NCBI GenBank assembly: GCA_026984935.1
Contig: JALSRD010000006.1
Span: 27,778-91,777, forward strand
Reading direction: 5' to 3'
Length of the DNA stretch: 64,000 bases
From: Desulfobacterales bacterium
Lineage (GTDB): Bacteria; Desulfobacterota; Desulfobacteria; Desulfobacterales; JALSRD01
Position numbers and translations under genes: made by a program. The notes below the pieces were generated by a model. It saw only the letters and a program-made list of their open reading frames with translations. It was not told where the DNA came from and did no database searches. Shown piece after piece: positions 51,362-54,486 of the stretch. Every line of letters starts with the position of its first letter. The first letter of the stretch is position 1.

Positions 51362-52621
51362 ATGGCTCTTTTTGCAACCGGCGCGGCATGCGGCCTCCTG
51401 ATCGGCTGGTTTGCCGCCCGGTTGAAGAGCAGCGAACATATCGCGGAGCTTACGGCGCAGCTGGCGCGGTTTGAGGCGGAACTGGACCATGCGCGCCGTG
51501 CGATGCAGGAAAAACGCGATCTTTTGTCGGAAGCCAGCAGCGGCATCCTCAGCGACTACCAGACGCTGGCGCGCCAGGCCCTTCAGGAAAACAGCCGCGC
51601 ATTTCTTGATCTGGCGCGGTCGGCATTTGCCGGCTATCTGGAGTCGGCCCGACGGGACCTGGAGAACCGGCAGGGCGGTATCCAGGAAATCCTGCGGCCG
51701 GTTCAGGACTCCCTGTCGCGCTATGAGCAGCAGATTCGGGAACTGGAGCGTTCGCGGCAGCACGCTTACGGCAGCCTGACCGAACAGGTGGCTGCCCTGT
51801 CCAGGGACCAGTATCGTCTGCAGCAGGAGACCGGCAGGCTGGCCAGGGCCCTGCGTGTGCCGCACGTGCGCGGACGCTGGGGCGAGATGACCTTGCGGCG
51901 CGTGGCCGAACTGGCCGGCATGGTCAATCGCTGCGATTTTTTCGAACAGGCCGGCACAGCGACGGAAAACGGCGTGCAGCGGCCGGATATGGTGGTGCAC
52001 CTTCCGGGCAAGCGCCTGGTCGCCGTCGACGCCAAAGCCCCTCTGGATGCCTATTTGAAGGCTCTGGAAGCCGAAGACGAGCATCAGCGCCGGGAGATGC
52101 TCAAGCGTCACCTGGCCCAGCTGGAGTCCCATGTAACGCAACTTTCCCGCAAGTCCTACTGGGCCGGCCTCCAGCCGTCGCCGGAATTTACGGTGCTCTT
52201 TATCCCGGGGGAAAATTTTTTCAGCGCCGCCCTGGCCCAGAACGACCGCCTGCTCGAATTTGCGGCCCGCAAAAACATCGTGCTGGCCAGTCCCGTCACG
52301 CTGATCTCGCTTTTGAAGACCGTGGCCCTGGTATGGCGCCAGGAAACCGCTGCACAGAATGCCACGGCCATTGCCGGGCTGGGGCGCGAGCTCCATGCAC
52401 GCCTGGGGTCATTGACCGCCCAGCTGCAGGCACTGGGCAGCCATATGGAGAAGTGCGTCAGCGGTTACAACCGCATGGTGGGCAGCTTTGAACGGCGCGT
52501 GCTGGTATCGGCACGCAAATTCGAACAGTTCGGCATTGCTTCTGGCAAAGAGGCGGCACTGTCCGCAGCCGATCCCCTTGAAGAATCCATTCGGAAACCT
52601 GCAGTGAAACGCGACCCATGA
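51362..52621 (+). CDS. rmuC: DNA recombination protein RmuC
   Basis: About 419 residues. An N-terminal membrane segment (ALFATGAACGLLIGWFAA) is followed by a coiled coil (about 25-190) and the RmuC nuclease-like domain with RGRWGEMTLRRVAELAGM, VDAKAPLDAYL and FIPGENFFSAAL. RmuC limits inversions at short repeats and is a PD-(D/E)xK-like protein. The ATG at 51362 places the membrane segment at the N terminus, but a GTG at 51341 is a plausible start. The 3' end overlaps mltA by 4 bases. Confidence 0.9.
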   Translation: MALFATGAACGLLIGWFAARLKSSEHIAELTAQLARFEAELDHARRAMQEKRDLLSEASSGILSDYQTLARQALQENSRAFLDLARSAFAGYLESARRDLENRQGGIQEILRPVQDSLSRYEQQIRELERSRQHAYGSLTEQVAALSRDQYRLQQETGRLARALRVPHVRGRWGEMTLRRVAELAGMVNRCDFFEQAGTATENGVQRPDMVVHLPGKRLVAVDAKAPLDAYLKALEAEDEHQRREMLKRHLAQLESHVTQLSRKSYWAGLQPSPEFTVLFIPGENFFSAALAQNDRLLEFAARKNIVLASPVTLISLLKTVALVWRQETAAQNATAIAGLGRELHARLGSLTAQLQALGSHMEKCVSGYNRMVGSFERRVLVSARKFEQFGIASGKEAALSAADPLEESIRKPAVKRDP

Positions 52622-53835
52622 AAAAGAAAAACCGTTTGTTCATGCGCCAACTGGCCGTTGTCGGATTCGGACTGCTGCTGGCTGCTTCGGCCTGCAGCCT
52701 GGAAGCTCCCCTGTCGCCGCCGGCCCGCCCCGCCCTGGTCCGGCTGGAGCAGGCCGATTATCCTGATTTTTATGACGACTTGGACTTTGTAAGTCTCGAC
52801 TACAGCCTGGGCCAGAGCCTGATCTATCTGCGGTCGTTGCCGCCACAACGCACCTTTGCGTTCGGCGCTGACCACTATTCCAGCGCCCATATGATCCGTT
52901 CCCTGGAGCGTTTCGGCACGTTTGTCCAGGCGCACCCTTCCCGGCGGCAGTTGAACCGCTTTATCCGCGCGCATTACCGCGTCTATCGATCCAGCGGCCG
53001 TGCCGCCACGCATGACGTGCTGTTTACCGGCTATTTCCAACCCACGCTGCAGGGCAGCCTGACCCCGACGGCCGAGTTCCGCTACCCGGTGTACTCCCGG
53101 CCGCCCGACCTGATCACCATCGACCTTTCGCAGTTTGCCGAGAAATACCGCGGTCAGCGCCTCACCGGGCGCCTCGCGGGCCAGACCTTTGTGCCTTACT
53201 ATGACCGCCGTCAGATCGATGGCCGCAGCGGGTTCGACTCCCGGGGCACCGAACTGCTGTGGGTCAAGGACCGCATCGACCTCTTTTTCCTGCAAATCCA
53301 GGGTTCGGGCAAGGTTTACCTGACCAACGGGCAGGCGCTCTACCTGCACTACCAGTCCAGCAACGGCCGGCCCTATCGCAGCATCGGCAAACTGCTCATC
53401 GATCAGGGCAAAATCCCGCGCTCCCAGATGTCCATGCAGCGCATCCGGACCTATCTTTCAACCCACCCCGAAGAGATCGATGCGGTGTTGGGCTACAATC
53501 CCAGTTATGTCTTTTTCGAGGTGGTTCCCCAGGGACCGTTGGGATATTTGGAAGTGCGGCTGACCCCCGGCCGGTCGCTGGCCGTCGACCACCGGGTATT
53601 TCCCATGGCCGGGCTGGCATTTGCCGATACCCGCAAACCGCTGATCGACGGCAATGGCCGCATCGATGCCTGGGCGGCCTGCCGCCGCTTTCTGCTGTGC
53701 CAGGACACCGGCGGGGCCATTCGCGGGCCTGGGCGCGCCGATCTGTTCTATGGCAGCGGCAGATACGCGGAAATCGCCGCCGGTCACATGCAGCAGCCCG
53801 GCCAGCTCTACTTCCTGGTGTTAAAGCCCGGGTAA
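52618..53835 (+). CDS. mltA: membrane-bound lytic murein transglycosylase A
   Basis: 405 residues. A lipoprotein signal (LLAASACSLEA, lipobox Ala-Ser-Ala-Cys) anchors it to the envelope. MltA family blocks are VLFTGYFQPTLQGS, IDLFFLQIQGSGKVYL and CQDTGGAIRGPGRADLFYGSG with the catalytic Asp. It cleaves peptidoglycan to 1,6-anhydro products. The stop codon TAA belongs to the left end of the IS66-type MITE at 53832-53991; without it the reading would continue as LKPGM and stop one codon later, so the insertion costs only the last Met. Confidence 0.94.
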   Translation: MKKKNRLFMRQLAVVGFGLLLAASACSLEAPLSPPARPALVRLEQADYPDFYDDLDFVSLDYSLGQSLIYLRSLPPQRTFAFGADHYSSAHMIRSLERFGTFVQAHPSRRQLNRFIRAHYRVYRSSGRAATHDVLFTGYFQPTLQGSLTPTAEFRYPVYSRPPDLITIDLSQFAEKYRGQRLTGRLAGQTFVPYYDRRQIDGRSGFDSRGTELLWVKDRIDLFFLQIQGSGKVYLTNGQALYLHYQSSNGRPYRSIGKLLIDQGKIPRSQMSMQRIRTYLSTHPEEIDAVLGYNPSYVFFEVVPQGPLGYLEVRLTPGRSLAVDHRVFPMAGLAFADTRKPLIDGNGRIDAWAACRRFLLCQDTGGAIRGPGRADLFYGSGRYAEIAAGHMQQPGQLYFLVLKPG

Positions 53836-53991
53836 GCGTTCACGGGGCACCGCATCTGCTTGGTTGTCGGGCCCTTGCAGTACAGGAGGTACGCCTGCAC
53901 ACCCGCCGCCGCACATCTGCAGCACCCCATAAGTGCTTACAGTTCGGCGGGTTACTGTAAAATAGACGGTGGCAACCCCGTGGACGGTTAC
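53832..53991. mobile_element. IS66-type MITE (non-autonomous insertion)
   Basis: The 160-bp element starts GTAAGCGTTCACGGGG; its right end read on the other strand is GTAACCGTCCACGGGG, a 16-bp terminal inverted repeat with 14 matches. The octamer AAGCCCGG flanks it on both sides (53824-53831 and 53992-53999). GTAA ends and 8-bp target duplications are hallmarks of the IS66 family. There is no transposase ORF, so it needs one elsewhere in the genome. The left end supplies the stop codon of mltA. Confidence 0.8.
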
Positions 53992-54000
53992 AAGCCCGGG

Positions 54001-54270
54001 ATGTGAAAAGAACCGGAGGCAATGGCGCCACCTGGAGATTTTGAGAAGAAGGAATCGCAAGGCTGAATTGCTGGAGATAAAAGCGGCTTGCACACATGCA
54101 GGTGACGCCGGTGGTCTTCAGCATGGCGGGAGGTGTTTATGAGGCAGTACGTTTCCTCGCCATGGACGGCCTGCTTGGCTTCCGATGCCAAAACTGGAAC
54201 CTGAAGGGCCCTTCACCAACGGCCGAGATTTGCACTTGTCGCTCCGAGTGCAGTGCCGCCCGCCGATGGG
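54001..54270. other. non-coding stretch between the MITE and the ferredoxin gene
   Basis: About 270 bases with short open frames in several phases but no ribosome-binding site joined to a plausible protein. A 21-codon ORF behind GGGAGG at about 54139 looks like chance. No repeat, hairpin or promoter stands out. Confidence 0.5.
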
Positions 54271-54486
54271 TTAATCACACGAACTGTGCACGATGGCCTC
54301 TTCCGGGCACACCGCGACGCAGGTGCAGCACTCGATGCACTGGTCGATGTAGGCGGCCACCGCTTTGCCGCCGGTGAGTTCATAGACTTCCCCGGGGCAC
54401 TGGTCCACACACATGGCATGGCCCGTGCATTTGTCATAGTCGACCTCAATGGTCACCGCATCGCTTTTCCAGGTCTTTACATCCAT
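54271..54486 (-). CDS. ferredoxin with a His-substituted first cluster
   Basis: 71 residues. The second motif is complete (Cys50-x2-Cys53-x2-Cys56-x3-Cys60, with an extra Cys54). The first reads Cys20-x2-His23-x2-Cys26-x3-Cys30, so the second ligand is His instead of Cys. The same C-x2-H-x2-C pattern marks [3Fe-4S] ferredoxins, so cluster I may be [3Fe-4S] or an unusual [4Fe-4S]. It is last in the nar-narK series on the same strand, 165 bases after narK, with AAAGGG before the ATG. It may carry electrons for nitrate or nitrite reduction, but this is only inferred from position. Confidence 0.85.
   Translation of the reverse strand: MDVKTWKSDAVTIEVDYDKCTGHAMCVDQCPGEVYELTGGKAVAAYIDQCIECCTCVAVCPEEAIVHSSCD

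What the first reader, a model, noticed from the sequence alone, without database searches (positions are those of the whole stretch)
53824..54000. IS66-type MITE that supplies the stop codon of mltA
A 160-bp element has 16-bp terminal inverted repeats (14 of 16 matches) beginning GTAA and an 8-bp direct repeat AAGCCCGG on both sides. Both traits are those of IS66 elements. It landed within the last codons of mltA, and its GTAA end provides TAA; removing the insert restores a reading that ends one Met later. It is a clean example of an insertion that is nearly neutral to the gene and yet changes its 3' end and mRNA tail.
Basis: partly seen in the sequence, partly recalled or inferred. Interest (0 to 1): 0.7.

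Follow-up and report, generated by a model that had tools for sequence, protein, structure and literature searches.

The report
Hairpin IS66-type MITE ending mltA
A 160-base piece of mobile DNA, one of a family found in many genomes of the same bacterial order and likely moved by IS66-type transposases, lies in the last codons of a cell-wall enzyme gene and provides its stop codon, apparently at the cost of one amino acid; the insertion itself looks ordinary, but relatives of the element share a hairpin that is better conserved than the spacer beside it.

Summary
Positions 53832-53991 hold a 160-bp element with 16-bp inverted ends (14/16) between perfect copies of AAGCCCGG, the only such structure of 100-300 bp in the window and none in 10 shuffled windows. 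mltA ends in the element's own GTAA. Joining the flanks gives 406 aa ending LKPGM; the nearest other MltA (87% identical) is 406 aa ending LKPGV. The IS66 reading holds: 42 of 389 genomes of the order match, home included, 7 of them by 27-29 bases only; of 135 full-length copies 84 have a perfect and 25 a 7-of-8 duplication; complete single-ORF IS66 elements in other genomes have matching ends and 8-bp duplications. Against: the home genome has one copy and no IS66 transposase, and IS and MITE share only 15-19 terminal bases. A new variant of a known kind, moderate interest.

The parts
52618..53835 (+). mltA, membrane-bound lytic murein transglycosylase A; its last codon GGG ends with base 1 of the element and its stop TAA is bases 2-4
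   Evidence: Pfam MltA PF03562 and 3D PF06725 over cut-off; NCBIfam murein transglycosylase A below cut-off (156.2 of 242 bits); ORF
53824..53831 (.). left copy of the 8-bp target duplication AAGCCCGG
53832..53991 (+). 160-bp IS66-type MITE
53832..53847 (+). left terminal inverted repeat GTAAGCGTTCACGGGG; identical over 16 bases to the end of IS66 copies in G279 (L262, L276, L286, L289)
53833..53835 (+). TAA of the element's GTAA end, used as the mltA stop codon
53832..53940 (.). 109-bp hairpin module (conserved across genomes; weaker in this copy)
53925..53940 (-). inner inverted copy of the element end (12 of 16 to the left end); in no copy examined does it carry a target duplication
53941..53975 (.). 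variable tail between hairpin and right end
   Evidence: mean pairwise identity 0.495 over copies from 17 genomes
53976..53991 (-). right terminal inverted repeat, reads GTAACCGTCCACGGGG inwards
53992..53999 (.). right copy of the target duplication AAGCCCGG
54000..54006 (+). GATGTGA: presumed original mltA end (joined to the left flank it reads GGG ATG TGA)
   Evidence: nearest other MltA ends ...LKPGV
54271..54486 (-). small 4Fe-4S ferredoxin gene, convergent with mltA; the MITE lies at the mltA side of the gap

Best explanation
The 160-bp sequence at 53832-53991 is a non-autonomous IS66-type miniature transposon, flanked by an 8-bp direct repeat, that was likely carried into the last codons of mltA by a single-ORF (ISBst12-like) IS66 transposase acting in trans, and its GTAA end now supplies the mltA stop codon. 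Shown by sequence: inverted ends, 8-bp repeats, the stop codon inside the element, absence of a transposase gene, related elements in other genomes of the order with their own 8-bp repeats, and complete IS66 elements with matching ends. Inferred: that such a transposase moved this copy (none is found in this genome), that the old protein ended LKPGM, and that the loss of one residue is nearly neutral. Also inferred: the internal 109-nt hairpin is kept by selection in the family, most likely because the folded strand aids movement or makes insertions at gene 3' ends tolerable; it does not appear to act as a second transposition end.
For: Structure found once in the window and not in 10 shuffled windows. 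Matches in 42 of 389 genomes of the order, home genome included, 7 of the 42 only over 27-29 bases; 40 or more scored copies in G158, G014 and G324. 109 of 135 full-length copies have a duplication matching 7 or 8 of 8; 8 of 2000 random pairs do, with a smaller choice of offsets. None of 29 other mltA loci of the order (L044-L072, E up to 1e-3) carries the element. Complete IS66 elements: 10 of 10 full-length single-ORF copies examined (1560-1587 bp, four genomes) have matching ends and perfect 8-bp duplications, as does 1 of 2 copies of a 2818-bp type; the transposase of G327 passes the NCBIfam IS66 cut-off (232.6 against 180 bits). Nearest other MltA, 87% identical, is 406 aa ending LKPGV against 405 ending LKPG, as the joined flanks predict. 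Hairpin: 13 of 39 pairs with two-sided changes against 4.0 (sd 1.2) in shuffles; interior 0.824 and inner end 0.895 mean identity against 0.495 for the tail. Inner end: 0 of 249 copies with a 7- or 8-base duplication there.
Against: The home genome, 99.45% complete by its record, has one copy and no IS66 transposase. Copy-rich G158, G014, G317 and G273 have no PF03050 match, though G014 and G317 keep weak relics by protein search; assembly loss of repeats or another transposase is possible. IS and MITE share only 15-19 terminal bases. In this copy the hairpin is weaker (bases 1-109 fold at -35.5 against -59.6 kcal/mol for the consensus) and the whole element folds end to end instead; its best full-length match elsewhere is 79% identical, so it may be old or of an unsampled subfamily. 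The covariation is modest: RNAalifold's covariation term is -0.15, the number of pair types is not above shuffles (55 of 500 reach it), and sliding the partners by -2 still scores 0.068 against 0.086. Of 11 IS66 copies 9 lie inside open frames, unlike the MITE. No transposition was observed.
Confidence: 0.88

Rival explanations
1. The MITE belongs to another transposase family with 8-bp duplications; the likeness of its ends to IS66 is convergence or recruitment.
For: Four copy-rich genomes have no PF03050 match; nothing beyond 15-19 terminal bases is shared.
Against: IS66 elements with closely matching ends and 8-bp duplications occur in genomes that also hold the MITE (G324, G327, G279, G159, G049); 15-16 bases are identical to the window's or the consensus ends in G279, G324 and G049, fewer in G159.
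Confidence: 0.08
2. The sequence is a host repeat, such as a REP/BIME-like palindrome or a 3'-end RNA element, kept for a function at gene ends; transposition is incidental.
For: Conserved, modestly covarying hairpin; 32 of 95 copies lie within 30 nt of a stop against 6.6% of AT-matched sites; the window element folds better than 200 of 200 shuffles (z -3.16).
Against: Perfect 8-bp duplications in 84 of 135 copies, copies 94-97% identical to one another's query in G158, 0 of 29 other mltA loci with a copy, no Rfam match near a gathering score in the 5 loci searched, no terminator-like site inside the window copy.
Confidence: 0.08
3. The hairpin's covariation comes from template-switch repair of imperfect palindromes, not from selection on the fold.
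For: Such repair of imperfect palindromes is known (recalled, no call); two-sided changes are few (25 of 1091 cells).
Against: Unpaired positions in the arms, such as the CATCTGC motif that stands in the same sense in both arms, are mostly conserved too, which repair would tend to erase.
Confidence: 0.3

Closest known systems
IS66 family, ISBst12 group (single-ORF IS66 elements), e.g. ISDge4 of Deinococcus geothermalis (PMC12898284, passages seen)
   Same: ISDge4: ends beginning GTGA and GTAA, imperfect inverted repeats, 8-bp direct repeat, one 449-aa transposase ORF; the IS66 copies of G327 here have one 466-aa ORF and 8-bp duplications
   Different: The MITE has no transposase gene and shares only terminal bases with the IS66 loci found
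MITEPye1 of Paracoccus yeei (IS1182-type; PMC11578231, passages seen)
   Same: Non-autonomous, inverted ends, direct repeats, long stem-loop predicted, preferentially intergenic
   Different: Other transposase family; 1-3 copies per chromosome; no third end mentioned in the passages seen
MITECca01 of Cardinium (IS982-type; PMC9769881, passages seen)
   Same: Non-autonomous relative of an IS, abundant
   Different: Keeps short subterminal IS sequence and has a resident parent IS; circa 240 bp
REP/BIME palindromes (PMC2817692, PMC3733652: only the starts of their abstracts seen in the listing)
   Same: Palindromic repeats named for lying outside genes
   Different: REPs are 20-40 bp by the abstract of PMC3733652; here 160 bp with 8-bp duplications and IS66-type ends

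Membership tests
IS66-type MITE | terminal inverted repeats like those of IS66 elements, starting GTAA | tested here: met
   14/16 ends; left end 16/16 identical to IS66 copies in G279
IS66-type MITE | 8-bp target duplication | tested here: met
   8/8 in the window; 84 of 135 copies 8/8, 25 of 135 7/8, 26 fewer. Published IS66 elements ISPpa5a and ISPpa7 are tabulated with 8-bp repeats (PMC3281130, passages)
IS66-type MITE | no transposase gene inside | tested here: met
   160 bp; the ORFs of 60 aa or more that overlap it run through it into the flanks
IS66-type MITE | multiple dispersed copies in the host genome | tested here: not met
   1 copy in G000; met in other genomes, e.g. 28 in G317 and 40 or more in G158
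IS66-type MITE | autonomous partner with matching ends in the same genome | tested here: not met
   no PF03050 and no IS66 protein match in G000; met in G324, G327, G279, G159 and G049
IS66-type MITE | interior derived from the parent IS (not required of every MITE; recalled) | tested here: not met
   only 15-19 terminal bases shared with 60 loci around IS66 matches, some overlapping
IS66-type MITE | mobilised by an IS66 transposase | not testable with these tools
   needs a transposition assay
ISBst12 group of IS66 (the proposed partner) | single transposase ORF of the IS66 family | tested here: met
   466-aa ORF at L103:1372-2772, NF033517 232.6 bits over a cut-off of 180; group definition from PMC12898284
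REP/BIME | short palindromes of 20-40 bp (listing) without target duplication (recalled) | tested here: not met
   160 bp with 8-bp duplications

The most novel reading that the evidence does not exclude
A class of bacterial MITEs in Desulfobacterales carries, between ordinary IS66 ends, a third silent end folded into a 109-nt mismatched hairpin that is itself the selected part. The hairpin makes the element a structure-dependent passenger of ISBst12-like transposases that settles at stop codons, where it rewrites gene 3' ends and serves as a portable mRNA tail.
Probability: 0.3. Interest if true: 0.65.

Novelty: new variant of a known kind. Interest (0 to 1): 0.45.

Why it matters
It gives a clean case of a mobile element supplying a gene's stop codon, with a near relative showing the predicted old length. 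It links a hairpin MITE found across an order to single-ORF IS66 elements, including ones in G324, whose chromosome has the same length as the cultured Desulfosarcina widdelii PP31, where mobility can be tested. That the hairpin is better conserved than the spacer beside it raises a testable question: whether a folded strand matters for this kind of transposition or for tolerance at gene 3' ends.

Tried and rejected
Home-genome partner: none. Rfam, 5 loci: two matches far below gathering score, one of them over a MITE copy (L024, mir-124, 22.7 against 49 bits). Plasmids: no match. Viral contigs: 0 exact matches to the 28-base consensus end. MltA relatives in genome contigs: 21 stretches matched a pattern, none confirmed. 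Inner end as a second transposition end: 0 of 249 with 7 or 8 matching bases. Stop donation as a special adaptation: 9 of 22 open frames is near one frame in three. Orientation preference at stops: none, 16 hairpin-side and 17 tail-side. Terminator-like sites: none inside the element; two at 54412-54428 on the plus strand. Near-stop bias as mere AT preference: 6.6% expected against 32 of 95; leaving out copies inside genes it is 32 of 84 against about 17%. Genes were called as longest open frames, so this is indicative. IS66 copies: 9 of 11 inside open frames, too few to compare and against a shared site preference. Literature: the listings (several of them capped) showed no IS66-family MITE of this kind; subscription papers and ISfinder were not searched.

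Rows dropped: one search kept hits that reach both ends of the model (135 unique of 333 hits); searches used only the 109 copies with 7 or 8 matching duplication bases, of these 99 or 95 with long enough flanks. The random control allowed 5 offsets, the copies more. In one search the inner end was tested at one offset, the outer end at up to 45. One search scored at most about 40 copies per genome. One search's pattern found the MltA end in 25 of 29 relatives. The structure counted was taken from the consensus of copies of the same family, which favours it on cells paired. One search used 17 genomes, those with a full-length copy that I named by hand.

Full report
Check of the observation. The window shows a 160-bp element at 53832-53991 with 16-bp inverted ends (14/16) between perfect copies of AAGCCCGG. 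Nothing else in the 64-kb window has an 8-bp direct repeat around 13/16 or better inverted ends 100-300 bp apart, and 10 block-shuffled windows give none. The mltA reading frame (MltA and 3D domains) ends in bases 2-4 of the element.

Empty site. Joining the flanks gives a 406-aa protein ending LKPGM. A protein search scored 7998 candidates and listed the best 120; apart from P0001, the window's own cluster (405 aa, same end, one residue different), the nearest is P0002, 87% identical, 406 aa, ending LKPGV. So the predicted extra residue exists in a near relative; its DNA could not be read here. The same-genus genome G053 has MltA 67% identical, with 14 residues after the shared proline (window: 1) and other DNA behind it. 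In 25 of 29 other relatives whose end was found, MltA runs two to about seven residues past the LKP-like motif. The end of MltA is thus variable, which fits a nearly neutral insertion, but neutrality was not tested. None of the 29 relatives' loci (L044-L072, with up to 1.5 kb on each side) has the element.

Spread. The element is alone in its genome of 3.9 Mb in 112 contigs, which has no IS66 transposase. The DNA query matches 42 of 389 genomes of the order, home genome included. Apart from the home copy, listed matches are 70-86% identical over 67 bases or more, or 93% over 27-29 bases; 7 genomes have only the latter. Ten stretches around such short matches were fetched. Nine were compared: they show a second subfamily with the same plan, a hairpin of about 107 bp followed by a tail, one of them (L082) cut by its contig end; in the open frames listed around them I recognised no transposase by eye. 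G158 has 40 scored copies out of 64 candidates, 94-97% identical to the query copy, which looks like a recent burst; G014 has 40 (134 candidates), G324 41, G317 28, G273 20, G159 19, G327 12, G104 9, G279 3, G049 2; same-genus G053 has none. An exact 42-base pattern finds 68 stretches in named genomes, among them Desulfosarcina widdelii PP31 and many Desulfobacteraceae assemblies; G324 has the chromosome length of that D. widdelii record. One stretch is from a Kiritimatiellae assembly whose isolate series (GH) also has a carrier, so it may be misbinned.

Target duplications. Of 135 unique full-length copies cut from the loci then held, 84 have 8/8 and 25 have 7/8 matching flanking bases; 26 have fewer. 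Random pairs with five offsets gave 8 of 2000 at 7 or more. Among the 84 perfect ones, targets are AT-rich with a tendency to a purine first and a pyrimidine last; AAGCCCGG is among the most GC-rich.

Partner. IS66 transposases (PF03050) occur in 16 of 30 MITE-bearing genomes tested. The single-ORF type was examined end to end: 10 of 10 full-length copies (4 of G327, 4 of G279, 1 of G324, 1 of G159; 1560-1587 bp) have perfect 8-bp duplications and ends such as GTAAGCGTTCACGGGG (G279), GTAACCGTTCACGGGG (G324), GTAAGCATTCACGGGG (G327) and GTACCCATTCACGGGG (G159). A 2818-bp type in G049 has GTAACCGTTCACGGG at both ends, with a perfect duplication in 1 of 2 copies. The G327 transposase passes the NCBIfam IS66 cut-off. 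ISDge4, a published single-ORF IS66 element, has GTGA/GTAA ends and an 8-bp repeat (PMC12898284, passages); two Paracoccus IS66 elements are tabulated with 8-bp repeats (PMC3281130, passages). Beyond 15-19 terminal bases the MITE shows no similarity to the IS66 loci. Against this: G158, G014, G317 and G273 have no PF03050 match, with weak relics of the single-ORF transposase in G014 and G317 only.

Hairpin. Bases 1-109 of the consensus fold as one long stem with internal loops; the element end recurs inverted near 94-109. In 28 copies, one per genome, 93.4% of cells pair, 13 of 39 pairs show two-sided changes (shuffles 4.0, sd 1.2) and slid registers give at most 3. The support is modest: pair types are not above shuffles (55 of 500 reach the value), the register slid by -2 keeps a covariation score of 0.068 against 0.086, and RNAalifold's own consensus has 25 pairs, 6 with two-sided changes, and a covariation term of only -0.15. 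In full-length copies from 17 genomes mean pairwise identity is 0.978 (left end), 0.824 (hairpin interior), 0.895 (inner end), 0.495 (tail) and 0.816 (right end). A passenger needing only its ends should not keep its interior better than its tail, unless hairpin modules were joined to different tails. The inner end carries no 7- or 8-base duplication in any of 249 copies (one offset tested), whereas 108 of 249 show one at an outer end (many offsets tested). In the window copy the hairpin is weaker (-35.5 against -59.6 kcal/mol); the whole element folds end to end, better than 200 of 200 shuffles (z -3.16).

Where copies land. Of 95 copies with good flanks, 32 lie within 30 nt of a stop, 13 within 30 nt of a start, 39 elsewhere between genes and 11 inside genes; sites matched for AT content would give 6.6%, 8.4%, 24.4% and 60.6%. 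In one search, counting a little differently, 33 copies near a stop split into 6 that cut the end of a gene, 14 whose duplication touches the stop codon and 13 downstream, with no side preference. So the mltA case is one of several; selection against insertions within genes explains part of the pattern. Of 11 IS66 copies 9 lie inside open frames, so the bias is not shown for the IS. Genes were called as longest open frames. In the window itself the element holds one promoter-like match (53936-53963, plus strand; 0.4 expected in shuffles of the region) and no terminator-like site.

Verdict. I call the element an IS66-type MITE by its ends, its duplication and the matching IS66 elements in related genomes, while the partner is absent from the home genome. 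The family's conserved hairpin with a silent third end is the part I would follow up.

Noticed in passing
L073-L082: Second subfamily with the same ends and plan (about 107-bp hairpin with another interior, then a tail often starting AGGACGGAG); 9 of the 10 stretches were compared.
   Followed up: partly
L265, L277 (G049): A 2818-bp IS66 with ends GTAACCGTTCACGGG; one copy has a perfect 8-bp duplication, another only 5 of 8.
   Followed up: no
L331: MITE match in a Kiritimatiellae assembly of the same GH isolate series as a Desulfobacteraceae carrier; possible misbinning or transfer.
   Followed up: no
alignment A1, both hairpin arms: The motif CATCTGC stands in the same sense in both arms (CACCTGC in some copies), opposite itself, so the stem keeps symmetric internal loops; also seen in the second subfamily.
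   Followed up: partly
window 53936-53963: A sigma-70-like promoter match (9 of 12) on the plus strand inside the element, pointing towards the convergent ferredoxin gene; 0.4 expected by chance.
   Followed up: no
window 54271-54486: Small 4Fe-4S ferredoxin, weakly like HgcB (46.6 bits against a cut-off of 99), convergent with mltA.
   Followed up: no
G049: 33 PF03050 matches in a genome of about 4.2 Mb, many identical, yet only 2 copies of this MITE were scored.
   Followed up: no
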